Shown piece by piece: positions 1 through 11,426 of a DNA stretch of 31,438 bases. The position numbers were made by a program, and so were the translations under genes. The DNA is from a virus: positions 1 through 31,438 of the IMG/VR virus record IMGVR_UViG_3300047508_000093; one strand, given 5' to 3'. Within the stretch, counting starts at the first letter, position 1. Each line of letters starts with the position of its first letter. The notes beneath the pieces were generated by a model. It worked only from the letters and a program-made list of their open reading frames with translations. It was not told the DNA's origin and made no database searches.

Positions 1-1994
1 CTCATCCAGATCGTGACGTAGTGGTCGGCAACGCCAATGAACTGCACCGTCGTCGCCAGCCCGATGCCATGATCCCCGCGAATGCGCTGGTAGAGGCCCG
101 CTACATTGTGCGAGTTGGGGCCGAACATCGCATTGGCAGTGTTGGTGAAAATGAACGAGTCGCTGGGGTTGTTGATCGCGGCGGCTTGACTCCACGCAGC
201 AATCGCCGTGGTGGGTATTTGAAGATTCGAGTCTTGGTCGATTAGCTTCGTACCCGAATACATGCTGCCGAAGAAGGAAACGCCGTTGAATTCCGCGCTG
301 CCATCCTTCCTGATGATCCAGCCGGTAGTCCTCGACGTGTACACATCGGACTGAATGCGGTCCGCGATGTTGACGATGTTCATCCGCACCTTGCCGCCCG
401 AGACGAGGAACGGCGGCGTAGTGCCCGTAGCCGAGTTGTAAATGGCAAAGTGATCGACCAAGATGACCATGTCGCTGGTCGGTATGCTTCCGTTGGTCAC
501 GTTCGCCGTGAGCTTCATGCCTGCGACGGCTTGCACGCCCCCAATTTGCGCCTGCACCTGCAACGACCACGAAGCATTCGCAGTCGCGGTGTCAGCGTTG
601 ACGTAGGTGATGAAATCCTGCTGAGACGCTGCTTGGTAAATGTTGCCGTTGGAATCCTTCAGCGCCGAGTACACCTGATCGAACTTGCGCGCGGTACCCG
701 CGTTGGGATTGGCAACGACGTTCGTGCTGCCGGTGACGAGTGCTTGGGTGCCGCCGAGTTGCGCCCAGAACAAGTTGAGTTGTGAGGCCAGCGCCGTGTC
801 GCTCGACGTACGCGCAGTTGTTTCTGCGGTGATGCCTGCTGACGAACTGGAAATGCGTGCATCACTGGCGTCCACCCACGCAGTGCCGGTGGCGTTCCAG
901 ATCATCAGCTTGTTCTGGTTGGTCGTGTCGATCCACAGGTCACCCGGCTTCAACGTGTAGGTCGCGTTGCTCGTAGGCGCAGTAGGCTGTGCGAACACTC
1001 TCGCCTTGAGGCCGGAATAGGCGATGACTCCCGAAAGCTGCCGCGCGCTGGCGGACGTGGAGTCGGCGGCGACGTTGTTGATCTCGTTAATCATCGCCAA
1101 GTTGCCGTTAACCTGCGCAGACATACCAGCGACCGTGCGGGCGATGGCCGAACCCGAAGTGGTGGTGACGGTGTTGATCTGAGCGATGTCGGCAGTTGCC
1201 TTCGGCAAGCCGGTGTTCGGATCGTTGGTCTGCGCGTTGAGTCCGTAAAGCTGCCGCGCATTGGCCGACTGCGAGGTGGCAGTCACCGTGTTGATCTGGA
1301 TGATCGCAGCGGTGTTCGCTATGTTGCCCGTGTTCGGATCGTTTACTGTCGCGACGAGGGCGGCAGTCTGCCGGGCATTGGCCGAACCTGAACTAACCGA
1401 TACGTTGTTGATCTGAATGATCGCGGCGGAGGCGGCGGGCAAGCCGGTTACCGGGTCGTTCACCTGCTCCTTCAACGCCACCAAACTCTGCGCGCTTGCC
1501 GACGTAGAGGTGTGGTCAATCGTGTTGATCTGAGTGATGTCGTTCTGAAGACCCGCAATCGTCTCGTTGATGCCGGTGAGCGCGTTGCGCATCTCGGTTG
1601 TCAGCGCGAAATAGTTCGCAAACAACTCGTTGCTGGTCCTGTAGACCTTGGTGAAGTCGACCAGCGTGATACCGGATGCGAGGAAGTCGAGCAGGTTCTG
1701 GAGTCCGGGCGGAATCGGGACCGTACCGCCACCGCCGCCGCTGCTGCCCGGTCCCGGTTCGAGCGTTGACGAGCCGGGTTGCCCAACACCAGCAATGGCG
1801 CGGATGTTGGGATTCTTCGCGAGGAAGTCCCACTCCTCCTTCGTGATGAACCGCTGCTTGTCGTCGGAGCCGCTGTTGCCGTTGCGCAACTGCCAGACGT
1901 TAGCGAGCGAGTCGCAGAAGGCCCGCACCTGCGGGTCTTTGATCCCGTCGGTCGGTGCGAGGGTGTTGACTCCCTTGTAGTAGCCGTCAGGCAT
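1..1994 (-). CDS. J-like tail fibre / host-specificity protein (partial, C-terminus beyond window)
   Basis: Open for 664 codons from ATG at 1994 and runs off the left edge without a stop. The start has a good ribosome site (AAGGAA, 6 nt away) and overlaps the upstream stop as ATGA. Residues 1-70 form a compact N-terminal region, followed by a Ser/Gly/Pro linker (about 74-97). Residues 153-304 hold about four 39-residue repeats carrying QINTV and SANARQ-like motifs. Further on are LWIDTTNQNKLMIWN and, near residues 520-590, the sequence style of gpJ C-terminal regions (DUF1983-like): VDHFAIYN, FLVSGGKVRMNI, then IQSDVYTS..GWIIRKDGSAEF. In phages such proteins sit at the tail tip and contact the host receptor. 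It lacks the large N-terminal gpJ domains, so it is better seen as a fibre with a J-type C-terminus than as a full gpJ. Role in adsorption is inferred. Confidence 0.8.
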   Translation of the reverse strand, partial: MPDGYYKGVNTLAPTDGIKDPQVRAFCDSLANVWQLRNGNSGSDDKQRFITKEEWDFLAKNPNIRAIAGVGQPGSSTLEPGPGSSGGGGGTVPIPPGLQNLLDFLASGITLVDFTKVYRTSNELFANYFALTTEMRNALTGINETIAGLQNDITQINTIDHTSTSASAQSLVALKEQVNDPVTGLPAASAAIIQINNVSVSSGSANARQTAALVATVNDPNTGNIANTAAIIQINTVTATSQSANARQLYGLNAQTNDPNTGLPKATADIAQINTVTTTSGSAIARTVAGMSAQVNGNLAMINEINNVAADSTSASARQLSGVIAYSGLKARVFAQPTAPTSNATYTLKPGDLWIDTTNQNKLMIWNATGTAWVDASDARISSSSAGITAETTARTSSDTALASQLNLFWAQLGGTQALVTGSTNVVANPNAGTARKFDQVYSALKDSNGNIYQAASQQDFITYVNADTATANASWSLQVQAQIGGVQAVAGMKLTANVTNGSIPTSDMVILVDHFAIYNSATGTTPPFLVSGGKVRMNIVNIADRIQSDVYTSRTTGWIIRKDGSAEFNGVSFFGSMYSGTKLIDQDSNLQIPTTAIAAWSQAAAINNPSDSFIFTNTANAMFGPNSHNVAGLYQRIRGDHGIGLATTVQFIGVADHYVTIWM
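1083..1538 (-). repeat. 39-residue tandem repeats inside the J-like fibre gene
   Basis: Three clean 39-residue units (residues 153-191, 192-230, 231-269) and a degenerate 35-residue unit encode a recurring pattern: QIN-(T/N)-V, a Ser/Thr stretch, S-A-x-A-R-Q, then a V-N-D-P-x-T-G turn. At DNA level the phrase for 'ATC-CAG-ATC-AAC' recurs every 117 bases. The heptad-like spacing suggests a trimeric coiled-coil shaft with regular kinks. Confidence 0.8.
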
Positions 1995-3943
1995 CAGACT
2001 TCCTTCAGTTCATCCGGCGATTGCGCAAACGCAATGTCCTCCAGTATGGCTCCCCCCGAAATCTGAATCGAAATCTGCCACTTCAACGCACCACGGTTCG
2101 GCGGCAAGCGAAAATAAGTTGTACGGTTCGTCGGGTTGAGCACCTGCGTGTGAATGAGCACGTCGTCTGCGTACAGCACCACGGTGATCCCGCCCCCTCC
2201 CGACATGCGCGCGAATCCAATGCCGAGCTTGGTGTACTTGGGCGTGATGAACAGCTTGCTGTCCCACTGCGCGTTCAGCGCCTGACCTTCGCGGAACCGG
2301 TATATCCTGCCGCCCGCAGCGTAGTACAGCGTGTCGAGCACGGGCAGGCGCATCAGCACGGTGCATTGAAAATCCCACTCCGTCATCGCACCACCGGCCT
2401 CGTCCAATTCCAGCACGAAGCCAGTTTGCACGTCGTAGCACGCAGCGACGACGCAGCCATCGTGGTAGGCCAACTGCATCGTCGGCAACGCATCGCCAAA
2501 CATGTCGCGCCATACCTTGCGTGTGAACATGCGCTGGTTCACCGCGAGCGAGGCTTGGCTTCCCTCGACCACCACGATGCCGTCGTTCGACAGGAAGGCG
2601 ACCCCGCCCTCGACGGCGCACATACTCCGCTGCGAGATGCCACCCACCGGAATCGGCACCGTCATGGAAGTCACGGAGTGCGGATGGGGGCCGGTCACGA
2701 CGTAGGTTGCCTCACGCGTGGTCACCACGATCACCTGCGCTCCCACACAGATACCCGTGATCGCCTTGGGGAACGTCATCGTGTACTGCCATGTGTGCGG
2801 CCTGTACGGCTCACTCATGAACAGCATGTTGTTCGCGAACGCGGCAAACCAGCCGTTGGGCGCGAGCACGAGGCCGAACATCCCGACCGGTGGCACCACC
2901 CACGTCAGCGACTGCAACGCCGTGCCTACGGTGGACTGCACGATGCGTGCGGAATCTGTGAAGACAGTGCCGGTAATGGCACCGACCGCGTTAGCCTTGA
3001 TGTACTGCGACCCGCCGTAGGTGCGGTAGACGTTGCTTTCTTGACGCAGGCGATAGCCACTCGCTGCGTTGTTGGGGTGTGTCATCGTCACCTGCACGTC
3101 CTGCAAATACGTGGGAGAGATGAGCGACACCGGAGACGGACCCGACTCCTCGTTCCACACGTTCACTTCCGTGAAAACGTACGCGCGCGTCTCGACGACA
3201 CCCCACGCGAAGTTGACGAAGTAGTCGCCAGCCACACCACCCGCTTCAAGCGTCATGGTGATGCCACCGGGCAACGCGGACGAGGTTGCAGGATATGTCG
3301 AGTTGCTGGCCGTGTTCATCGAGAACAACTGCTTGGTGCTCTCGCTCGCGACGGCCTGCACGACGAGAACTGCGGTAGCGGGAGCGTCGGCAGGTTTCGC
3401 GGGAGCGGTGATGGCGTAGCGCCGCCACACAGCGATAGCGTTCGCCGCTATGTCCGTGACGCCGTAATCCACGCCGCCGTCGGAGTACCACGCCTTGAAC
3501 GCAATGGTCGCTGCCGGATAGTCCGCGAGCGAACTGCGGTCGATCAGCAGGAGCGCAGGCGCGACGGTAGGATTGGGAACACCTGCGGCCCACTTCTGCC
3601 CCGCCGGAGGAGGACCGCCCGTCACGGCTATGGACTCAGGTGTCGGCGACACCATGAGCACACCGCCCTCGATGTAGTAGATGCGGTTGTAAATCTCGTT
3701 TATGACGGGCGAGCGGTACGCGACGACCTCGGTAGGCCATGTGTACCAGTAGATTCCCTCGGTCGTGTACATGCCGCGTATCGTGCCGCCGAGGTTGACG
3801 ACTTCCAGCCCGCCTTGCAACGCCTGAAGCTCGCTGCGGCTGAAGTCGCAGTTGCCCGCGAACGATGCGGCGTTGTCGGGCAGCAGGTGATCCGGCTGGC
3901 GCGGGATCATCCCGACGAAATCTTTGAGGGACATGGCAGTCAT
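1994..3943 (-). CDS. Virion structural protein, possible beta-propeller tail nozzle / stabilisation protein
   Basis: 649 residues. The ATG at 3943 has GAGGTG 6 nt upstream, inside the end of the preceding gene; a second ATG 12 nt further (MSLKDF) is less well placed. The N-terminus (MSLKDFVGMIPRQPDHLLP followed by NAASFAGNCDF) resembles the opening of podoviral nozzle and DNA-stabilisation proteins, which begin with an 'R-P-x-x-L-P...A-x-x-A-x-N' phrase. The body is beta-rich with many W, Y and G residues and recurrent strands of the type VxxLSNDGIVVVEG and LYYAAGGRIYRF, typical of propeller blades. No catalytic motif is seen. Lying between fibre genes and sharing an ATGA overlap with the J-like gene, it is probably part of the tail. 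Family assignment is an inference; 'tail protein of unknown function' is the safe name. Confidence 0.6.
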   Translation of the reverse strand: MTAMSLKDFVGMIPRQPDHLLPDNAASFAGNCDFSRSELQALQGGLEVVNLGGTIRGMYTTEGIYWYTWPTEVVAYRSPVINEIYNRIYYIEGGVLMVSPTPESIAVTGGPPPAGQKWAAGVPNPTVAPALLLIDRSSLADYPAATIAFKAWYSDGGVDYGVTDIAANAIAVWRRYAITAPAKPADAPATAVLVVQAVASESTKQLFSMNTASNSTYPATSSALPGGITMTLEAGGVAGDYFVNFAWGVVETRAYVFTEVNVWNEESGPSPVSLISPTYLQDVQVTMTHPNNAASGYRLRQESNVYRTYGGSQYIKANAVGAITGTVFTDSARIVQSTVGTALQSLTWVVPPVGMFGLVLAPNGWFAAFANNMLFMSEPYRPHTWQYTMTFPKAITGICVGAQVIVVTTREATYVVTGPHPHSVTSMTVPIPVGGISQRSMCAVEGGVAFLSNDGIVVVEGSQASLAVNQRMFTRKVWRDMFGDALPTMQLAYHDGCVVAACYDVQTGFVLELDEAGGAMTEWDFQCTVLMRLPVLDTLYYAAGGRIYRFREGQALNAQWDSKLFITPKYTKLGIGFARMSGGGGITVVLYADDVLIHTQVLNPTNRTTYFRLPPNRGALKWQISIQISGGAILEDIAFAQSPDELKEV

Positions 3944-3946
3944 GGA

Positions 3947-5197
3947 TTACACCTCGCAGATTCCCGGTTGGCGTTGGCCTTTCAGGGCCACTAAGTCGGC
4001 GTAGACGTAGAGCAGATTGTGCTCCTTGTGCCAGTCACTGGGGTGCTCCTGCCAGATGCGCGTGCCCTGAAAGCGTGCAACGATTCCGGGCACGTACTGG
4101 CGCTGCTGCGCTCGCGTGTAGTACCAGAACGAGTTGGGATTCCAGAAGCTGCAATGGGTCGGGTCTTGGAACGCGCCTCGTCCGTCCGTTGATGGAGTGG
4201 CTGACAGGAGCCATCCACCCGGTACCAAGACCCGGTAGATTTCATTCATCACGCCGACGACACAGTACGGCGGCTCGTGCTTGCACGACGAATCACGGCA
4301 GTGCGGAATGTGTTCGAGGAAATCGTAGGCGCGGATCACCCCAATGGACGATTCGCTGAACGGCCACTTCTTGCGCAAGTCGTAGCCGTTCTTCAGGTCC
4401 ACTGCGATGAACCCCTCGGGGCAACCCGTCGCGCCGCCGAGATCGAGCTTGCCCAGACCCGCGCGCTGGCACCACTCATGTACCAGCGCGTGAGTGTAGC
4501 GGTTGGAAAGCTCGTGCTGCTTGGCCTGAATCTCGGCGTTGCGCTTGAGCCACGTATTGCTGCCGTCATCCTTGATCCGGTAGAGGTACAGGCACTCCTC
4601 GATGTGACGGAACGTGGCACCCGCGAGGTACGTGCGCGCAACCAGATCGAAGTCGTCGCACACGCCGAGATTCGGATCATGCCCACCAACCTTGTGGTAC
4701 ATGTCCTTCTTCCACACACGCACATGGTCGGGCGCGAAGAAAATCTGACGCAGCGAACTGGCGTTGGCGTCAAAGCTGCGATTCACCTTGAACTGCTCCT
4801 GCTGGTAGTGCTCCCAGCCGAATTCCTTGCCGTACAACTGATATTCGCCGTTGCCGCGAAACTGTGCAGCATCGGAGTAGATGAAGTCGACGTCCACCGC
4901 CGCGATCTTCTCCAGCGCGGTGGGCAGCAGCATGTCGTCGTGATCGAGTTCAACCAGATACTCCCCCTCGCACTGGTCACACGCGTACCGCTTCAACGCG
5001 CCGACACCCGACGTGGACATCCACGCAGGCGCGGTCAGCACACGCACACGCTCGTCATCGAACTCGGACAGCAGCTTCGCGCCGTTGTTGAGCACGATCA
5101 CCCACTCCCAGTCGCGGTAGGTCTGCGCGAGCAGCGAGTCGTACGTCTCCTTCAGGAACTTCGTATCGTGCGTTGGTGTAAACACTGAGAACTTCAA
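3947..5197 (-). CDS. Fusion: GT-A family 2 glycosyltransferase + SAM-dependent methyltransferase-like domain
   Basis: 416 residues. The only sensible start is TTG at 5197, with AAGGGGA 8 nt before it; it overlaps the previous stop as TTGA. Residues 1-240 read as a family-2 glycosyltransferase: MKFSVFTPTHDTKFLKETYD start, the nucleotide-sugar/metal motif VELDHDDML (DHDD at 85-88), GGHDPNLGVCDDFDL (171-185) holding the likely acceptor-side acid, and YRIKDDGSNT (206-215). Residues 248-400 resemble a class I methyltransferase: LDLGGATG (251-258) as motif I, DFLEHIPH (292-299), and MNEIYRVLVPGGWLLSATP (317-335), followed by FQDPTHCSFWNPNSFWYY. Motif I lacks the usual second-position Cys/Gly pair, so activity of this half is uncertain. 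It lies inside the fibre operon, next to glycine-rich and collagen-like proteins, which suggests that virion proteins are the acceptors; a cell-surface sugar is the alternative. Confidence 0.85.
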   Translation of the reverse strand: MKFSVFTPTHDTKFLKETYDSLLAQTYRDWEWVIVLNNGAKLLSEFDDERVRVLTAPAWMSTSGVGALKRYACDQCEGEYLVELDHDDMLLPTALEKIAAVDVDFIYSDAAQFRGNGEYQLYGKEFGWEHYQQEQFKVNRSFDANASSLRQIFFAPDHVRVWKKDMYHKVGGHDPNLGVCDDFDLVARTYLAGATFRHIEECLYLYRIKDDGSNTWLKRNAEIQAKQHELSNRYTHALVHEWCQRAGLGKLDLGGATGCPEGFIAVDLKNGYDLRKKWPFSESSIGVIRAYDFLEHIPHCRDSSCKHEPPYCVVGVMNEIYRVLVPGGWLLSATPSTDGRGAFQDPTHCSFWNPNSFWYYTRAQQRQYVPGIVARFQGTRIWQEHPSDWHKEHNLLYVYADLVALKGQRQPGICEV

Positions 5198-5907
5198 CCG
5201 ACTTTCCCCTTAATGTGAGTCGAATCGTTGCCGTCAATCCAAGTGATCGCGCTGTTCGGTTGCCCGTTCAGATCAATAGCAAACGCCTGCCCTTGCTCTC
5301 CTACTACAAATGCACCCCAGCCTTTGCCGGTCCCACCAGTAGTAGCATCGCTGCCACCGCTGGCACCGCCAGCACCCTTAGTGTTGAAGTTGCCCCCATG
5401 CCCAGCATCGCCGTCTCCAGAAGCAAACTGAGCACTCCCGCCTGCTCCACCGCTACTATTCGGCGATCCCTGCCCACCGCCACCGCCACCGCCGCCCGCA
5501 CCAAGTCCTGTCGATCCTTTCCCTCCCTTAGCCCCAGCGCCGCCGCCGAAAATAAAACCATCGGCGACACTGATGATGATCGGTATGGCAGCAGATATAG
5601 CTGTACCTCCCCTTGCCCCAACAGAACCTGCCTGCCCGCCTGCATTACCTCCCTTGCCGCCGTTACCTCCCTTGCCGACGATGTAGCTGTTACCAGAAAA
5701 AAGAAGCTGTATGGTGGAACCAGCAGCAAACCTGTTCGATATCATCATCCCCGGCGTACCGGAGACAATTGCACCGTTGATGATCGAGCAAACAACGTTG
5801 ACAACATCATCCGGCGATCCAGCTTCAGTATGCAAGTTGACATCACTACGATTGCTGGAAATCGTAATGTAGATCGTGTTGCCGAACATCCCGCCGTGCG
5901 CGGGCAT
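5194..5907 (-). CDS. Glycine-rich adhesin-like tail protein
   Basis: 237 residues, ATG at 5907 overlapping the previous stop as TAATG, with AAGGGA a little upstream. Residues 1-72 are a beta-rich N-terminal domain. From 73 the protein becomes glycine-rich: GNSYIVGKGGNGGKGGNAGG (72-91), then a short hydrophobic strand TAISAAIPIIISVADGFIFG (102-121), then GGGAGAKGGKG and a run of eight or more glycines (about 138-145), more Gly/Ser/Ala to 197, and an ordinary C-terminus. Alternation of 'I-x-N-x-G-x-I-x-G' strands with polyglycine is the style of gp38-type receptor-recognising tips, which pack polyglycine II helices. Function as a receptor-binding tip is inferred from this and from the neighbours. 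A later ATG (residue 7) is possible. Confidence 0.65.
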   Translation of the reverse strand: MPAHGGMFGNTIYITISSNRSDVNLHTEAGSPDDVVNVVCSIINGAIVSGTPGMMISNRFAAGSTIQLLFSGNSYIVGKGGNGGKGGNAGGQAGSVGARGGTAISAAIPIIISVADGFIFGGGAGAKGGKGSTGLGAGGGGGGGGQGSPNSSGGAGGSAQFASGDGDAGHGGNFNTKGAGGASGGSDATTGGTGKGWGAFVVGEQGQAFAIDLNGQPNSAITWIDGNDSTHIKGKVG

Positions 5908-6998
5908 TACCCCATTCCCTTCGCGAAGCCCACGACATCAACCGTCGCACCATCGTGGCAACGCAACGTGATCTCGTCACGACCCGCAGCCGAAAGAGAA
6001 TAAGTACCAGCACCTCCCGGCCACTTCACGCCGGGGAAGAGCGTGGCAACCGAAGTCGCCACGCCGCCGTTGGTGAGCGACACCACCAAGTAGCCGACTG
6101 CACCGTTCGGCAAATTCTGATGTGTGAAGGTTGCGCCTGCGGCGGTGATCGTCGCTGTTACCAAACCGTTCAACCAAGGAAGCGCCGTGCCCGCCGCCGA
6201 GACGTTACCGAGCACAGTCTTGGCCTCGCGCTCGTACTGTGTAATCAATCCGACGAGGCCGTAGAGAGCACGGCCATTCGCATTCAGATTGCCAGCACCA
6301 TCAATAACAAACGCGTTCGCTTCATGCAGCAGCCGGTACGACGCCGCGCCCATCGACCAGCCGCCGACCTTCCACTGATTGTCGGTGTCGATGCCGAAGT
6401 AGGCTGCATAGTTGATCTTGTGGAACCCCATGAACGCAGCGTCAGCCGCGCTGGCGCTGCGCGCTTCCATCTTGTGCTGCCCGCCAGTGCCTGCTGCGAT
6501 GGCCCCTTGCGAGCCGATGGAAAGCATCGCGTTGTAATTGACGAGATTGCCCGCGCCGTCGATGACGTTCTGGGCAGTCCGCTGCAAGTAGCCCGACAGA
6601 TCAGGTGTCGTTCCCGCCGGTCCTTGCGGCCCTGCTCCACCTTGCGCACCTGCACCGCCCGCTGCGCCTTGCGGGCCTGCACCACCCGCTGGACCCTGCG
6701 CACCCGCTGCACCTTGCACACCTGCCGAACCCTGCGCGCCTGTTCCCGGTGGCCCCTGCACTCCCACTCCACCCTGCGGGCCTTGCGCACCGCTCGCACC
6801 CTGCGCGCCCTGCGTACCCACCGGGCCTTGCGATCCTGTCGCACCTTGCGGCCCGCCCGGAGTTCCCTGCGGTCCTTGCGGTCCTTGCGAGCCGACAACG
6901 GTGCCGCCCAGCCACGCACCGGCTGCGGCACTCCACGTCCACATCGCGCCGCCCGCGACGAACTGCTGACCATCGGTGGGTGAGTTGGGGAAGTCCAT
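5907..6998 (-). CDS. Collagen-like tail fibre protein 1
   Basis: 363 residues; ATG at 6998 directly abuts the upstream TAG, with GAGG 5 nt before it. The N-terminus [11 protein letters not shown]...W.W is a common phage fibre opening. Residues 36-129 are uninterrupted Gly-X-Y triplets dominated by GPQ, GAQ and GPA, without the lysine-rich triplets of animal collagen. The C-terminal part carries [19 protein letters not shown] followed by W.VGGWSMG and then [20 protein letters not shown], with GRDEITL; both are recurrent modules of phage side-tail-fibre tips. The collagen segment should form a trimeric rod presenting the C-terminal domain. Expected on the virion surface (family knowledge plus inference). 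Confidence 0.85.
6612..6893 (-). repeat. Collagen-type Gly-X-Y repeat tract in fibre 1
   Basis: About 94 codons with glycine at every third position (residues 36-129). At DNA level it shows as a CCTTGCG/CACC/CGC-rich pattern with 9-base periodicity on the plus strand. Confidence 0.9.
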
Positions 6999-8309
6999 CT
7001 ATGCCTCGCAGAAGAGAAGAGGTCCACCCACGTCAATTCCTCGCCAATGGAATACAGACATGTACATCGAATCGACATCGAGGTGACTGTTAACGGTCAC
7101 GTTAGATTGCATCTGCGAACCGATGAGGTTGAAACCCCACAGGGCATTGTTCACATCGGCAGGCGTTGGCGCAGGGGTGCGACCCCAAATGTCGCCGGGG
7201 CCACCGCCCTGAAACCACGAACTGTCAGGCGGATTCTGATTCGATGTCGGCGCAGGTATGTTCTGAACGTGAGACTGCGTTGTATTCCCGTCATAGAGTC
7301 CGGTCGCAAGATCGACAAAATTCCACGTCAAATCCCAAGCACCCGAAGATGTGCTGCCCGTACCTGTCCATGCACGCAGTCTTGACTCGGTTGAAAACCC
7401 AAGGACTGTCGCAGCAGCCGGAACAGCGAAGGCGAACGTGGCACGCAGGCAATTCGAGTCACGACGAGCCGTCGTGAGCAGAGTGGCACGAGCATCATCA
7501 TCAGCAGTGACATTGCCGGGGTTCGTCCACGAAATTGCACTGGGCAATCCCGAAGCCGTCTGCACGCCCGTAGCCGCGATCTGCGTGACCGCTGTTACTG
7601 TCGGCGGCACGAGCATCACGCCCATCGCAGCGGTGCTCACCGAGATGCTGTTACTCCACGCGTTCCCATTCGGCAGCGTAATGTTCGGCGTACCAACCGG
7701 CGTCGTCGGCGAATCTCCAATGTAGACACTTACTGCTTGACCGGTACTGCCCACCGAATAGTTAGTGACGCGCGCCGTGTACGCGCCGGTCTGGCTCGTC
7801 GCGGGCGGAGTACACGTCATACCTTGGTATTCGCACAGCGCGAACAGAACCACCATACCTGCATTCGCACTCAGCGGATTGAACATCGGGTTGGTGACCA
7901 TCTGCCCGACACCGCCACCCGAAGATGTGGCATTTGCTGGAACATTGCACCACTGAGGGTATGCCGCATCGCAACTACGGTACGCGACGACAGCAGCGAC
8001 ACAAGGTTGCGAGAGCCGCGCAACGATGTCCCAAAAAGCGGACGCTTCGCTGCCGGTCCACTTGTGAAAATAGATGCGACCTATGCTCCCTGTACCCCCA
8101 CCCGCATCCGTAGAGAAGAATGCATTGACCGGAGCGCCCCATGCTGCATTAACACCCGGTGCTTGTGCAGCAGTAACATTGGCGCAGTAGTTCGCGGTAA
8201 GCAGCACCAGCCAATCGCCAACCGCGAGTCCCGTGATCGGCGTGAGCGTTATGGTGGCGTTGGAACCCGAGACTCTGGTCGTACCGACGAAAAATGGTTG
8301 CGCGAGCAT
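6999..8309 (-). CDS. Beta-rich virion surface protein of unknown function
   Basis: 436 residues, ATG at 8309 overlapping the previous stop as ATGA; no clear ribosome site, so translation is probably coupled. The sequence is rich in Thr, Ser, Ala, Gly, Trp and Asn and poor in Lys and Glu, typical of extracellular or virion beta-sandwich proteins. There is no signal peptide or membrane segment. Phrases such as ITLTPITGLAVGDWLVLLTA, WTGSEASAFWDIVAR and the C-terminal MYMSVFHWRG look like repeated beta modules (roughly 1-215 and 215-436). Several Cys residues (near 105-120 and 160-170) stand out in an otherwise Cys-poor set of neighbours. It lies between two collagen-like fibre genes, so it may be a fibre tip, decoration or attached adhesin. 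I do not recognise the family. Confidence 0.7.
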   Translation of the reverse strand: MLAQPFFVGTTRVSGSNATITLTPITGLAVGDWLVLLTANYCANVTAAQAPGVNAAWGAPVNAFFSTDAGGGTGSIGRIYFHKWTGSEASAFWDIVARLSQPCVAAVVAYRSCDAAYPQWCNVPANATSSGGGVGQMVTNPMFNPLSANAGMVVLFALCEYQGMTCTPPATSQTGAYTARVTNYSVGSTGQAVSVYIGDSPTTPVGTPNITLPNGNAWSNSISVSTAAMGVMLVPPTVTAVTQIAATGVQTASGLPSAISWTNPGNVTADDDARATLLTTARRDSNCLRATFAFAVPAAATVLGFSTESRLRAWTGTGSTSSGAWDLTWNFVDLATGLYDGNTTQSHVQNIPAPTSNQNPPDSSWFQGGGPGDIWGRTPAPTPADVNNALWGFNLIGSQMQSNVTVNSHLDVDSMYMSVFHWRGIDVGGPLLFCEA

Positions 8310-11110
8310 CAGTACACCGCTGCATTAGCGAACCACGCACCGCCAGCATTCCCACCCCACTCCAAGAACGCGACGATAGCTTCCTTGCGCGGACCCGCAG
8401 CGAAGTTCGGAACGATACCCAGCGGCCACACGACAGAAGCAGGGAAAGTGATCGTGCCCCCTTGCGTGTTGTAGAAGTAGAGCTTCAGCATCGGCCCATA
8501 GATGTCGAAGTTGCTGAATGACAAAGTGAGATTGCCCACGACCTGAATCGCCTGCACCATCCCGCTCTGCCAGTTGATGGTGAGTGCGCCGCTCTGCGCC
8601 CCCAAGCCAAGTGCCGACGACTGAATCTGCCCCGGCACGAGCACTTGCGCAGTGAGCGCCTTGGTCGTCTTGTTGAACGTGAACGACCCGTCGCCCGCAG
8701 GCGCACCCGCATCGTTGTAGATGACCTGTGTGTTGGCACCACCAACCGGACCCACCGCACCCTGTGGACCCTGCGCGCCAGCAGCACCCTGCGCGCCGCC
8801 CGCACCTGCTGCACCTTGGTTACCTTGTGGTCCTGTCCCGCCTGCTGCGCCCTGCGGTCCTTGCGAACCTGCGCCACCCGCTGCACCTTGCGGTCCAGTT
8901 CCACCCGCCGCACCTGCTGCACCCTGCGGACCCTGCGGGCCTGCAACAGTCGATGCTGCACCTTGCGGCCCAGCCGGTCCCTGCGCTCCCTGCGCGCCCG
9001 TGCCACCGACGAACTCGACCCACTGCTTCGACGTACCGTCGTCGAAGAGAATGAACGTGCGACCGTTGTCGGTATCCCACCACGCCGCACCGACCGGCGT
9101 CGTCGATGTCGACGGTGCCGTTGCTGCGATGATGAACAGCGACGGACCCTGTGCGCCTTGCGGTCCCTGCGGTCCTAGCCCCTGCGTACCCTGCGGTCCC
9201 TGCGGACCCGCTGCGCCCTGCGCGCCTGCACCAACGGCACCCTGCACACCTTGCGTACCCTGTGGTCCCTGCACGCCTGCACCACCCTGCGCGCCCGGTA
9301 CACCCTGAAAGCCGGTACCCGTCTGTCCCTGCGGTCCCTGCGGGCCAGCACCACCCTGCGCGCCAGCACCACCCTGCGGACCGGTATTACCTTGCGGACC
9401 CGCTGTCCCGACTCCCGTTGTACCTTGCGGTCCCTGCGGGCCTGCTACACCCTGCGCACCGGGATTACCCGCTGGTCCTTGTGGTCCAGTTTCGCCAAGA
9501 GGGCCGGGTTCGCCGTCCGGGCCTTGGAAGCCCATATCGCCATCAGCACCCTGCACGCCTTGCGGACCGGGAATCGTCGAAGCAGCACCTTGCGCACCTT
9601 GGAAACCCTGCGGACCCTGCACACCTTGGTAGCCCTGCGCACCGGCACCGCCCTGCGAACCCTGCACACCCTGCGGGCCTTGTATACCCGCACCGACAGC
9701 GCCCTGCACACCTTGCGGACCCTGCGGGCCTTGCGCGGCTGCACCACCTGCTATGCCTTGCGTGCCCTGAAATCCCTGTGGTCCTTGCGGCCCCGTTGCT
9801 CCGACTGCCCCGCCCGACTTAATCAGTACAGCAACTTTGGCGTTGTTCTGCATCGTGCCGGTGCCGCCGAAGTTCACGAACTCGACTGGCACCGTCAAGA
9901 AGTCGGCCATCTCGTTACCGGGACCGGTCTTCCTCCACGTCTGGTAGTTGTAGGAAAAGTCCGCGTCCTGAACGATGAACTCGTCTTCGATCTCGGTGAT
10001 GCGGAAGTAGGCGAGCGCGTCGAAGCCGTCCTCGGTCAGCCGGTCGAAGACGAGGTTCGTCGCTGCCTGCTGGTTGGCGTTGTCCCAACGCATCTTCCCC
10101 GAGCCGGGATCGGCAAGGCTGACCCCCTGCGTGTCAGCCCGATAGAAGAAGACGTTGGACGACGAACCCGTCAATCCTTGGAAGCCCTGCGGCCCGGTGT
10201 CGCCTTGGAATCCCTGCGCACCCGTAACGGATGCACCTTGCGGCCCAGCATCGCCCTGCGGACCAACGTAACCCTGCGGCCCGCCAGCGCCCTGCGGGCC
10301 TTGCGCGCCTTGCGTGCCGACATCGCCCTGCGGTCCCTGCGGGCCTGTCAAACCCTGCGGACCCGCTACGGTTGAGTCCGCACCTTGTGGTCCCGGCGAA
10401 CCCTGCACACCATGCGCGCCCTCCGGTCCCTGCGCGCCCTGCACCCCCGGCGCACCTGCACCCTGCACACCTTGCGGACCCTGCGCACCCAGCAGCCCTG
10501 CTGTGCCCTGCGGTCCTTGCGGACCTTGCGCACCGATGAACTCGACCCACTGCTTCGAGTTGCCATCGTCAAAGAGGATGAACGTACGCCCGTTATCCGT
10601 ATCCCACCAAGCTGCACCAACCGGTGTGGTTACGGTCGACGGCGCGTTCGCGGCGACGATGAAGAGCGATGGACCTTGCGGACCCTGAGCACCCTGCGGG
10701 CCGGTGCCACCGGAACCTTGTGCGCCTTGCGGGCCGGGCGCGCCTTGCGCACCGGTACCCGGCGGTCCCTGCACACCGGACACGCCCTGCGGCCCAGCTA
10801 CGGTTGACGCGACACCTTGCGCGCCCTGCGGACCTTGCGGGCCGACAAGACCCTGCGGGCCTTGCGCGCCGACCGAACCCTGCGTGCCCTGCGCGCCGAC
10901 GTTGCCCTGCGCGCCGACATCGCCCTGCGGCCCCGTTGTACCGATGCCTACCGGGCCTTGCGCGCCCTGTGGGCCGGTAACGCTGACACCCTGCGACCCC
11001 TGTGGGCCTTGCGCGCCCCGCGCGCCCTGCGGCCCGCGTACCGCCTCGACAATGACGACTGTCGGTGGCGGTATCTCAGGAATTGCTACCGAGAGGGTGT
11101 CATCGGGCAT
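8309..11110 (-). CDS. Collagen-like fibre protein 2 (large, with duplicated internal module)
   Basis: 933 residues from ATG at 11110, one base after the upstream stop. An in-frame TTG at 11155 would add 15 residues but has no ribosome site and overlaps the upstream gene by 44 nt, so ATG is preferred, although its own ribosome site is weak. Order: short N-terminal anchor (1-25, [18 protein letters not shown]), collagen tract I (26-147), module A1 (148-194, [18 protein letters not shown]), tract II (195-315), a folded middle domain (316-435, containing [19 protein letters not shown]), tract III (436-656), module A2 (657-704), tract IV (705-791), and a C-terminal beta domain (792-933, ending WFANAAVY). 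The 'WWDTDNGR...FDDG.SKQWVEF' module is recurrent in phage tail proteins. A long surface fibre is expected. Confidence 0.85.
8999..9142 (-). repeat. Module A2, copy of the WWDTDNGR domain
   Basis: Encodes about 48 residues nearly identical to the module encoded at 10529-10669. The shared core is [18 protein letters not shown] then SKQWVEF; differences are conservative (FIV to FII, ANAPST to ATAPST, GN to GT). Confidence 0.85.
10529..10669 (-). repeat. Module A1, copy of the WWDTDNGR domain
   Basis: Encodes about 47 residues matching the module at 8999-9142, about 1.5 kb away in the same reading frame. Evidence of duplication inside one fibre gene. Confidence 0.85.
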
Positions 11111-11111
11111 T

Positions 11112-11426
11112 TCAAGCTGTCGTGCCTTCTCCGAGAAGGTCGAAGGCACGTCCAACGACGAGCGGCGCGAACTGCTCGCCGACCTTCTGCTTGATGAGCG
11201 CCACGTCCTCTGCCTTCAGGTCATGCACGCCCCCGCCGCCAATCTTGAGCGCGAGCGAATAATATTTGTACTTCACCTGCGCATCCTTCTCTTCGGTCGC
11301 GCGCAGCAGCGCCTCGCTCGCGACCCACGCGAGTGTGGCTGGCTGACTCACACCATTCGCATCGGCTGGCTGCATCAGCGGCGAGTCGTTGAGGTTCAAA
11401 AGAATTGCGGAAAAGTCGATCTTCAC
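11112..11426 (-). CDS. Small virion-module protein of unknown function (104 aa)
   Basis: Starts with GTG at 11426, overlapping the upstream stop as GTGA. The longer open frame reaching 11765 has no ribosome site and would cover all of the upstream gene. The sequence [17 protein letters not shown], then [25 protein letters not shown] and a C-terminal [21 protein letters not shown] is the style of small tail-assembly-associated phage proteins: one copy of an alpha/beta fold with a 'D-V-A-L-I-K' helix. It is tightly placed between another small protein and the large collagen fibre, which suggests a fibre chaperone or tail-assembly helper (inference only). Confidence 0.7.

What the first reader, a model, noticed from the sequence alone, without database searches (positions are those of the whole stretch)
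3947..5197. Glycosyltransferase-methyltransferase fusion embedded in a fibre cassette: possible virion glycosylation system
A GT2 domain (DHDD at 85-88) is joined to a methyltransferase-like domain in one gene, translated by a TTGA overlap from a glycine-rich adhesin gene and followed by a 649-aa tail gene. Two collagen-like fibres lie just upstream. Neighbouring position plus coupling suggests that its acceptor is a virion protein, with the sugar then methylated, which would alter adsorption or immune recognition. Such an assignment is inference: the same enzymes could modify host lipopolysaccharide.
Basis: partly seen in the sequence, partly recalled or inferred. Interest (0 to 1): 0.75.

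Follow-up and report, generated by a model that had tools for sequence, protein, structure and literature searches.

The report
Sugar-plus-methyl enzyme for collagen-like fibres
The gene is one enzyme that looks able both to attach a sugar and to methylate; across many phages and bacteria it sits beside a collagen-like protein gene, so it most likely decorates collagen-like fibres, a link I found no report of in the papers I could search.

Summary
Window 3947-5197 (minus strand) is an intact, selected 416-aa gene: an N-terminal GT-A/GT2 domain (DHDD at 85-88) and a C-terminal class I SAM methyltransferase, both modelled with high confidence. It overlaps the glycine-rich gene by TTGA. In 112 non-redundant relatives (about 35-90% identical), a Gly-X-Y tract lies within 3 kb in 25 of 58 viral and 40 of 54 cellular loci, spread over the tree. 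In three actinobacterial genomes every long collagen tract belongs to the gene 0.4-0.9 kb away. The associated collagens are Gly-X-Gln type (61% and 50% Gln at Y, against 17% in control viral collagens). The collagen-plus-enzyme cassette recurs at 83%/72% DNA identity in a phage whose backbone differs. C. difficile SgtA beside bclA3 is a tested precedent. Not shown: any activity, the sugar, the residue, or that the fibre is modified. Over half of the viral relatives are not beside a collagen gene, and most Gly-X-Gln collagens lack the enzyme. Verdict: real; a new variant of known collagen and virion glycosylation systems; the mechanism is inferred.

The parts
3947..5197 (-). 416-aa glycosyltransferase-methyltransferase fusion (TTG start)
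   Evidence: dN/dS 0.09-0.15
4463..5197 (-). GT-A / GT2 half (residues 1 to about 245) including the helical linker 220-246
   Evidence: PF00535 E=1.3e-9; Foldseek PDB hits K4CP 2z86, WrtF 9omm, SpsA 1h7q
4934..4945 (-). DHDD metal/nucleotide-sugar motif, residues 85-88
   Evidence: D85, D87, D88 invariant in 73 of 73 sequences
3950..4462 (-). class I SAM-dependent methyltransferase half (residues 246-416), family signature PSTDGRGAFQDPTHxSFWNxNSFWYY
   Evidence: model pLDDT 94.8, VIA Z 12.7 to 1vl5 and 3dli; conservation
5194..5907 (-). glycine-rich fibre/adhesin-like protein, 237 aa, TTGA overlap with the fusion; not itself a Gly-X-Y collagen
   Evidence: weak PHROG tail-fibre matches
5907..6998 (-). 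collagen-like fibre 2, 363 aa; proposed acceptor (Gly-X-Gln type: 15 of 31 triplets have Gln at Y)
   Evidence: PF01391 E=8.7e-8; triplet counts
6999..8309 (-). 436-aa fibre-cassette protein of unknown family
   Evidence: no Pfam or PHROG match
8309..11155 (-). collagen-like fibre 1, 948 aa; proposed acceptor (95 of 173 triplets have Gln at Y)
   Evidence: PF01391 E=5e-46; triplet counts
1994..3943 (-). 649-aa virion protein downstream
   Evidence: PHROG 511 E=2.6e-85
3..1994 (-). tail-tip protein, 664 aa, runs to the window end
   Evidence: PF09327 Phage_Tail_Tip E=3.4e-18

Best explanation
The fusion is a soluble cytoplasmic enzyme that modifies collagen-like proteins. Proposed steps: the GT2 half takes a host nucleotide-sugar and links the sugar to residues of the Gly-X-Y tract of the newly made collagen-like fibre; the methyltransferase half then caps that sugar with a methyl group from SAM; the decorated fibre is built into the virion (phage) or placed on the cell surface (bacterium). 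SHOWN by computation: the two folds, conserved catalytic-type residues, purifying selection, linkage to collagen-like genes in viruses and in bacterial chromosomes, the specific Gly-X-Gln type of those collagens, and occurrence of the pair together on different phage backbones. INFERRED: that linkage means the collagen is the substrate; that Thr/Ser (by analogy with SgtA) are the residues; that the methyl goes on the sugar rather than on the protein; the order of steps; any effect on adsorption, stability or proteolysis.
For: Collagen tract (at least 8 Gly-X-Y) within 2 kb in 22/58 viral and 39/54 cellular representatives; random placement of the gene in the same loci gave means of 13.0 and 16.7 and never reached the observed value in 2000 trials. 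Gene-level control 19/43 v 24/378 and 9/17 v 6/127. Whole genomes: in three actinobacterial genomes (6.5, 5.4 and 6.3 Mb) all tracts of 18 or more triplets (13, 27 and 163 pattern matches) are accounted for by the gene 0.43-0.87 kb from the fusion; in a fourth all 277 reverse-strand matches are, 0.5 kb away, besides two forward matches in another Gly-rich stretch. Gln at Y: 61% and 50% v 17% in control viral collagens (p=6e-13, 2e-14); with X=Pro, 78% and 74% v 22%. Cassette: L018 shares the fusion (89% aa) and both collagens, but no capsid or tail match was found and only a 41-51% terminase. GT-only relatives lie within 3 kb of a Gly-X-Gln collagen in 9/16 loci while MTase-only relatives do in 0/4. 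Precedent: C. difficile SgtA, gene immediately upstream of bclA3, adds GlcNAc to Thr in its collagen repeats (PMC7157674). No other sugar gene was recognised in the window; no membrane segment (max KD19 1.17).
Against: More than half of the viral relatives have no collagen tract near by, and 16 of 24 examined (mostly partial) records have no (GXQ)3 match anywhere. Only 1 of 80 Gly-X-Gln viral collagen loci carries the fusion, plus one with the GT-only form, so the enzyme is not required for this collagen type. Thr/Ser, the expected O-glycosylation residues, are not enriched (Thr at Y 13-21% v 32% in controls). GT-only counts come from close relatives of a protein found through a Gly-X-Gln scan, so they are biased. 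There is no independent GT2 family as a baseline. No biochemical evidence exists.
Confidence: 0.66

Rival explanations
1. It modifies host surface glycan (LPS, teichoic acid or capsule), for example to block superinfection, and only happens to lie in the fibre module.
For: GT2 hits include surface-glycan enzymes (TarS, RmlT, WrtF; TuaG and WcaA models far below cut-off). Phage GTs are often so interpreted (pelagimyophages, PMC7029224). Many viral relatives are not near collagen genes.
Against: In the bacterial chromosomes tested it is linked to a collagen gene next to housekeeping genes such as ruvB, yebC, rpoD and dnaE; no other sugar-pathway gene or membrane segment was recognised in the window; it sits in the late structural strand; LPS enzymes would not explain the Gly-X-Gln bias.
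Confidence: 0.15
2. Hitch-hiking: fibre regions are exchange hot spots, so the enzyme and collagen genes meet without a functional link.
For: The fibre genes around the fusion are the most variable part of the close relatives, and more than half of viral copies lie elsewhere.
Against: Same pairing in bacterial chromosomes with a single long-collagen gene; a compositionally specific partner; L018 keeps collagen and enzyme together on another backbone; the tree needs 13 virus/genome changes, at least 11 of them forced by starred branches, while collagen-linked members occur throughout.
Confidence: 0.12
3. The methyltransferase half methylates the protein itself (for example the glutamine side chains of Gly-X-Gln triplets), alongside glycosylation by the other half.
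For: Strong Gln bias at Y; methylation of a Gln side chain in a GGQ motif is known for PrmC/HemK (own knowledge).
Against: The invariant motif is PSTDGRGAFQDPTH..., without the NPPY motif of PrmC-type glutamine methyltransferases (motif from own knowledge); MTase-only relatives lie away from collagens; Gly-X-Gln collagens are common without the fusion.
Confidence: 0.05

Closest known systems
C. difficile SgtA-BclA3 (PMC7157674)
   Same: GT-A-type enzyme encoded immediately next to a collagen-like gene; shown in vitro to glycosylate the collagen repeats (beta-O-GlcNAc on Thr).
   Different: SgtA carries C-terminal TPRs and no methyltransferase; its collagen is GPT-rich; a spore-coat protein, not a virion fibre. 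Actinobacterial relatives of our fusion have a separate TPR gene between collagen and enzyme.
Chlorovirus PBCV-1 A064R (PMC9614988)
   Same: GT and SAM-methyltransferase domains in one viral protein, shown to build and 2-O-methylate a virion glycan.
   Different: Two GT domains of other families, N-glycan on a capsid protein, eukaryotic algal virus; homology to our protein was not tested.
Mycobacteriophage virion glycosylation (Freeman 2023, as cited in PMC11600133)
   Same: Phage-encoded glycosyltransferases plus an O-methyltransferase; glycans on virion proteins.
   Different: Separate genes; acceptors are capsid and tail-tube proteins; tblastn of our protein at E 1e-5 found no mycobacteriophage record; only a GT-fold match to the Che8 enzyme.
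Mimivirus L230 collagen lysyl hydroxylase-glucosyltransferase (PMC9614988)
   Same: A bifunctional viral enzyme that glycosylates a viral collagen-like protein.
   Different: Second activity is hydroxylation, not methylation; the acceptor is hydroxylysine, while Lys is about 1-2% at Y here.
Synechococcus phage S-CRM01 SCRM01_090c
   Same: Full-length homologue, 39% identity over 99%; annotated only as glycosyl transferase (one record) or methyltransferase (the other). The phage also has two annotated collagen-repeat genes, with Gly-X-Gln repeats.
   Different: The enzyme gene lies about 51 kb from the nearer collagen gene.

Membership tests
Glycosyltransferase family 2 (GT-A fold) | Significant match to the Pfam GT2 model and GT-A fold | tested here: met
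   PF00535 38.7 bits against a cut-off of 23.3; Foldseek E 2e-13 to K4CP and other GT-A enzymes
Glycosyltransferase family 2 (GT-A fold) | DXD-type motif conserved | tested here: met
   D85, D87, D88 in 73 of 73 sequences
Glycosyltransferase family 2 (GT-A fold) | Sugar transfer from a nucleotide-sugar | not testable with these tools
   needs an enzyme assay
Class I SAM-dependent methyltransferase | Rossmann-like class I MTase fold | tested here: met
   half predicted alone, pLDDT 94.8; VIA Z 12.7, 136 residues at 2.6 A to 1vl5
Pfam methyltransferase families PF13489 / PF08241 | Curated Pfam score reached | tested here: not met
   PF13489 18.1 bits against a cut-off of 27; PF08241 15.7 against 21.2: a class I member by fold, not filed in these Pfam families
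Class I SAM-dependent methyltransferase | SAM binding and methyl transfer | not testable with these tools
   needs binding or activity data
SgtA-type collagen glycosyltransferase system | GT gene next to a collagen-like gene, in many genomes | tested here: met
   collagen tract within 3 kb in 25/58 viral and 40/54 cellular representatives
SgtA-type collagen glycosyltransferase system | Thr-rich GPT repeats as acceptor | tested here: not met
   Gly-X-Gln repeats; Thr at Y 13-21%, so it is not filed as an SgtA member, though it may work like it
SgtA-type collagen glycosyltransferase system | Glycan present on the collagen repeats | not testable with these tools
   needs mass spectrometry
Mycobacteriophage virion glycosylation enzymes | Sequence relationship to those enzymes | tested here: inconclusive
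   no mycobacteriophage record among 16 hits at E<=1e-5; GT-fold similarity to Che8 only
PBCV-1 A064R-type GT-MTase | GT and MTase in one viral protein acting on a virion glycan | not tested
   domain pairing alike; function from PMC9614988; the two sequences were not compared

The most novel reading that the evidence does not exclude
A widespread bifunctional enzyme family (GT2 plus class I methyltransferase) is dedicated to decorating Gly-X-Gln collagen-like proteins with a methylated sugar. It is shared by phage fibres and by surface collagens encoded in genomes assigned to Proteobacteria, Actinobacteria, Planctomycetes, Bacteroidetes and others, moves together with its substrate as a cassette, and in Actinobacteria works with a TPR protein.
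Probability: 0.5. Interest if true: 0.75.

Novelty: new variant of a known kind. Interest (0 to 1): 0.62.

Why it matters
Bacterial and phage collagens are thought to lack hydroxyproline (own knowledge), and how they are modified is known in few cases. A single enzyme family that marks one class of collagen-like fibre would give a genomic marker for modified collagens, a testable enzyme for making glycosylated, methylated recombinant collagen, and a direct experiment on whether phage fibres are glycosylated. It also warns against reading phage glycosyltransferases as LPS modifiers by default.

Tried and rejected
Chance ORF or pseudogene: rejected (dN/dS 0.09-0.15, invariant residues). Prophage origin of the cellular relatives: rejected for the three proteobacterial loci tested, which lie beside ruvB, yebC, rpoD and dnaE; not tested for the others. 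Gene-level collagen search missed some high-GC loci where the collagen was called on the wrong strand, so it was redone on DNA. Reverse test (do Gly-X-Gln collagens predict the fusion?) was weak: 1/80 with the fusion, 1/80 with the GT-only form, 0/120 of control collagens. The Freeman 2023 paper is not held. My paper searches found no description of this fusion beside collagens; that is not proof of absence.

Full report
What is there. Bases 3947-5197 (minus strand) encode an intact 416-residue protein with a TTG start inside a run of structural genes on one strand. The stop of the glycine-rich gene (5194-5907) and the start of the fusion share TTGA. Close relatives begin at the same codon with ATG or TTG. 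dN/dS is 0.09, 0.11 and 0.15 against L017, L018 and L004. The N-terminal half matches GT2 (PF00535, 1.3e-9); the C-terminal half only weakly matches Pfam methyltransferases. AlphaFold2 on a 73-sequence alignment gave pLDDT 95.5. The whole model matches GT-A enzymes in the PDB; the C-terminal half alone (pLDDT 94.8) matches class I methyltransferases at Z 12.7. D85, D87, D88 and D182 are invariant; the MTase half carries a family signature, PSTDGRGAFQDPTHxSFWNxNSFWYY.

How widespread. At 90% identity the fetched near-full-length proteins fall into 112 clusters (58 viral, 54 cellular). The only close match among annotated phage records is S-CRM01, 39% over 99%.

The main result. Nearly all close relatives have a collagen-like gene a few genes away, including bacterial contigs. 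At the DNA level, tracts of at least 8 Gly-X-Y triplets lie within 2 kb in 22/58 viral and 39/54 cellular representatives (25 and 40 within 3 kb); random placement in the same loci gives 13.0 and 16.7 on average at 2 kb and never the observed number in 2000 trials. Gene-level controls: 19/43 against 24/378 for viruses (p=4e-10) and 9/17 against 6/127 for genomes (p=2e-6). Many cellular contigs end one or two genes upstream of the fusion, perhaps because repeats break assemblies, so the cellular figure may be an underestimate. In Micromonospora endophytica, Saccharomonospora sp. and Saccharopolyspora flava the numbers of 18-triplet pattern matches in the whole genome (13, 27, 163) equal those expected from the one collagen gene 0.43-0.87 kb from the fusion; in Promicromonospora sukumoe the 277 reverse-strand matches (12-triplet pattern) do likewise, with two further matches in another Gly-rich stretch. 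Three proteobacterial loci tested are chromosomal.

Which collagens. The neighbouring tracts are of one kind, Gly-X-Gln: Gln at Y is 61% (viral) and 50% (cellular), against 17% in 102 control viral collagen loci; restricted to X=Pro, 78% and 74% against 22% (p=4e-10, 6e-12). The controls were drawn with a Gly-Pro pattern, which is why the restricted comparison matters. In the window, 95 of 173 and 15 of 31 triplets have Gln at Y. Why Gln is favoured is unexplained; Thr is rarer than in controls. S-CRM01 and several other viruses whose fusion is not beside a collagen gene carry Gly-X-Gln repeats elsewhere (8 of 24 records).

Cassette and domain logic. L018, from a phage with a 41-51% terminase and no detected match to the window's capsid or tail proteins, shares the fusion (83% DNA) and a collagen gene (72% DNA), with no flanking similarity. 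In L017, a near-identical backbone, the fusion stays at 96% while the glycine-rich adhesin drops to 39%. GT-only relatives lie within 3 kb of Gly-X-Gln collagens in 9/16 loci (closely related and found through a Gly-X-Gln scan, so biased); MTase-only relatives, 63% identical to the MTase half, follow a 639-641 aa gene and have no collagen. This suggests the GT half is what goes with the collagen. The tree needs 13 virus/genome changes (at least 11 forced by starred branches), with collagen-linked members throughout.

Interpretation. The simplest reading is that the enzyme glycosylates the collagen-like fibre and methylates the added sugar. The step from neighbour to substrate is inference, with a tested precedent in SgtA-BclA3 and a precedent for a GT-MTase protein on a virion glycan in A064R. 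Against it stand the unlinked viral copies, the weak reverse test, and the lack of Thr/Ser enrichment. LPS modification and hitch-hiking remain possible at lower weight. Novelty: a new variant combining known elements; I did not find it described in the papers searchable here.

Noticed in passing
L112:1003-1623, L129:7999-8589 and similar: In about 18 loci, mainly actinobacterial, a TPR protein (PF00515/PF13181), often with a lipoprotein-like N-terminus, sits directly upstream of the fusion, in many of them between it and the collagen gene; SgtA has TPRs fused to its GT.
   Followed up: partly
L033:9378-9992, L032:9284-9988, L097:3171-4154: A DUF6445 (PF20043) gene lies directly beside the fusion in four phage loci and in Thiothrix; function unknown, possibly a further modification enzyme.
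   Followed up: partly
L012-L015: MTase-only relatives 63% identical to the MTase half follow a conserved 639-641 aa gene that looks like a ribonucleotide reductase by eye (not tested) and have no collagen.
   Followed up: no
L167-L174: Large cyanobacterial proteins (up to 1188 aa) carry a relative of the MTase half.
   Followed up: no
L031 and L064, minus-strand ORF just upstream of the fusion: Low-complexity Asp/His/Met-rich ORF on the strand opposite the fusion in two viral contigs; may be an antisense artefact of a repeat gene.
   Followed up: no
L149, L108, L123: L149 (Prauserella) has the fusion split into two ORFs; L108 and L123 hold two copies of the fusion in one locus.
   Followed up: no
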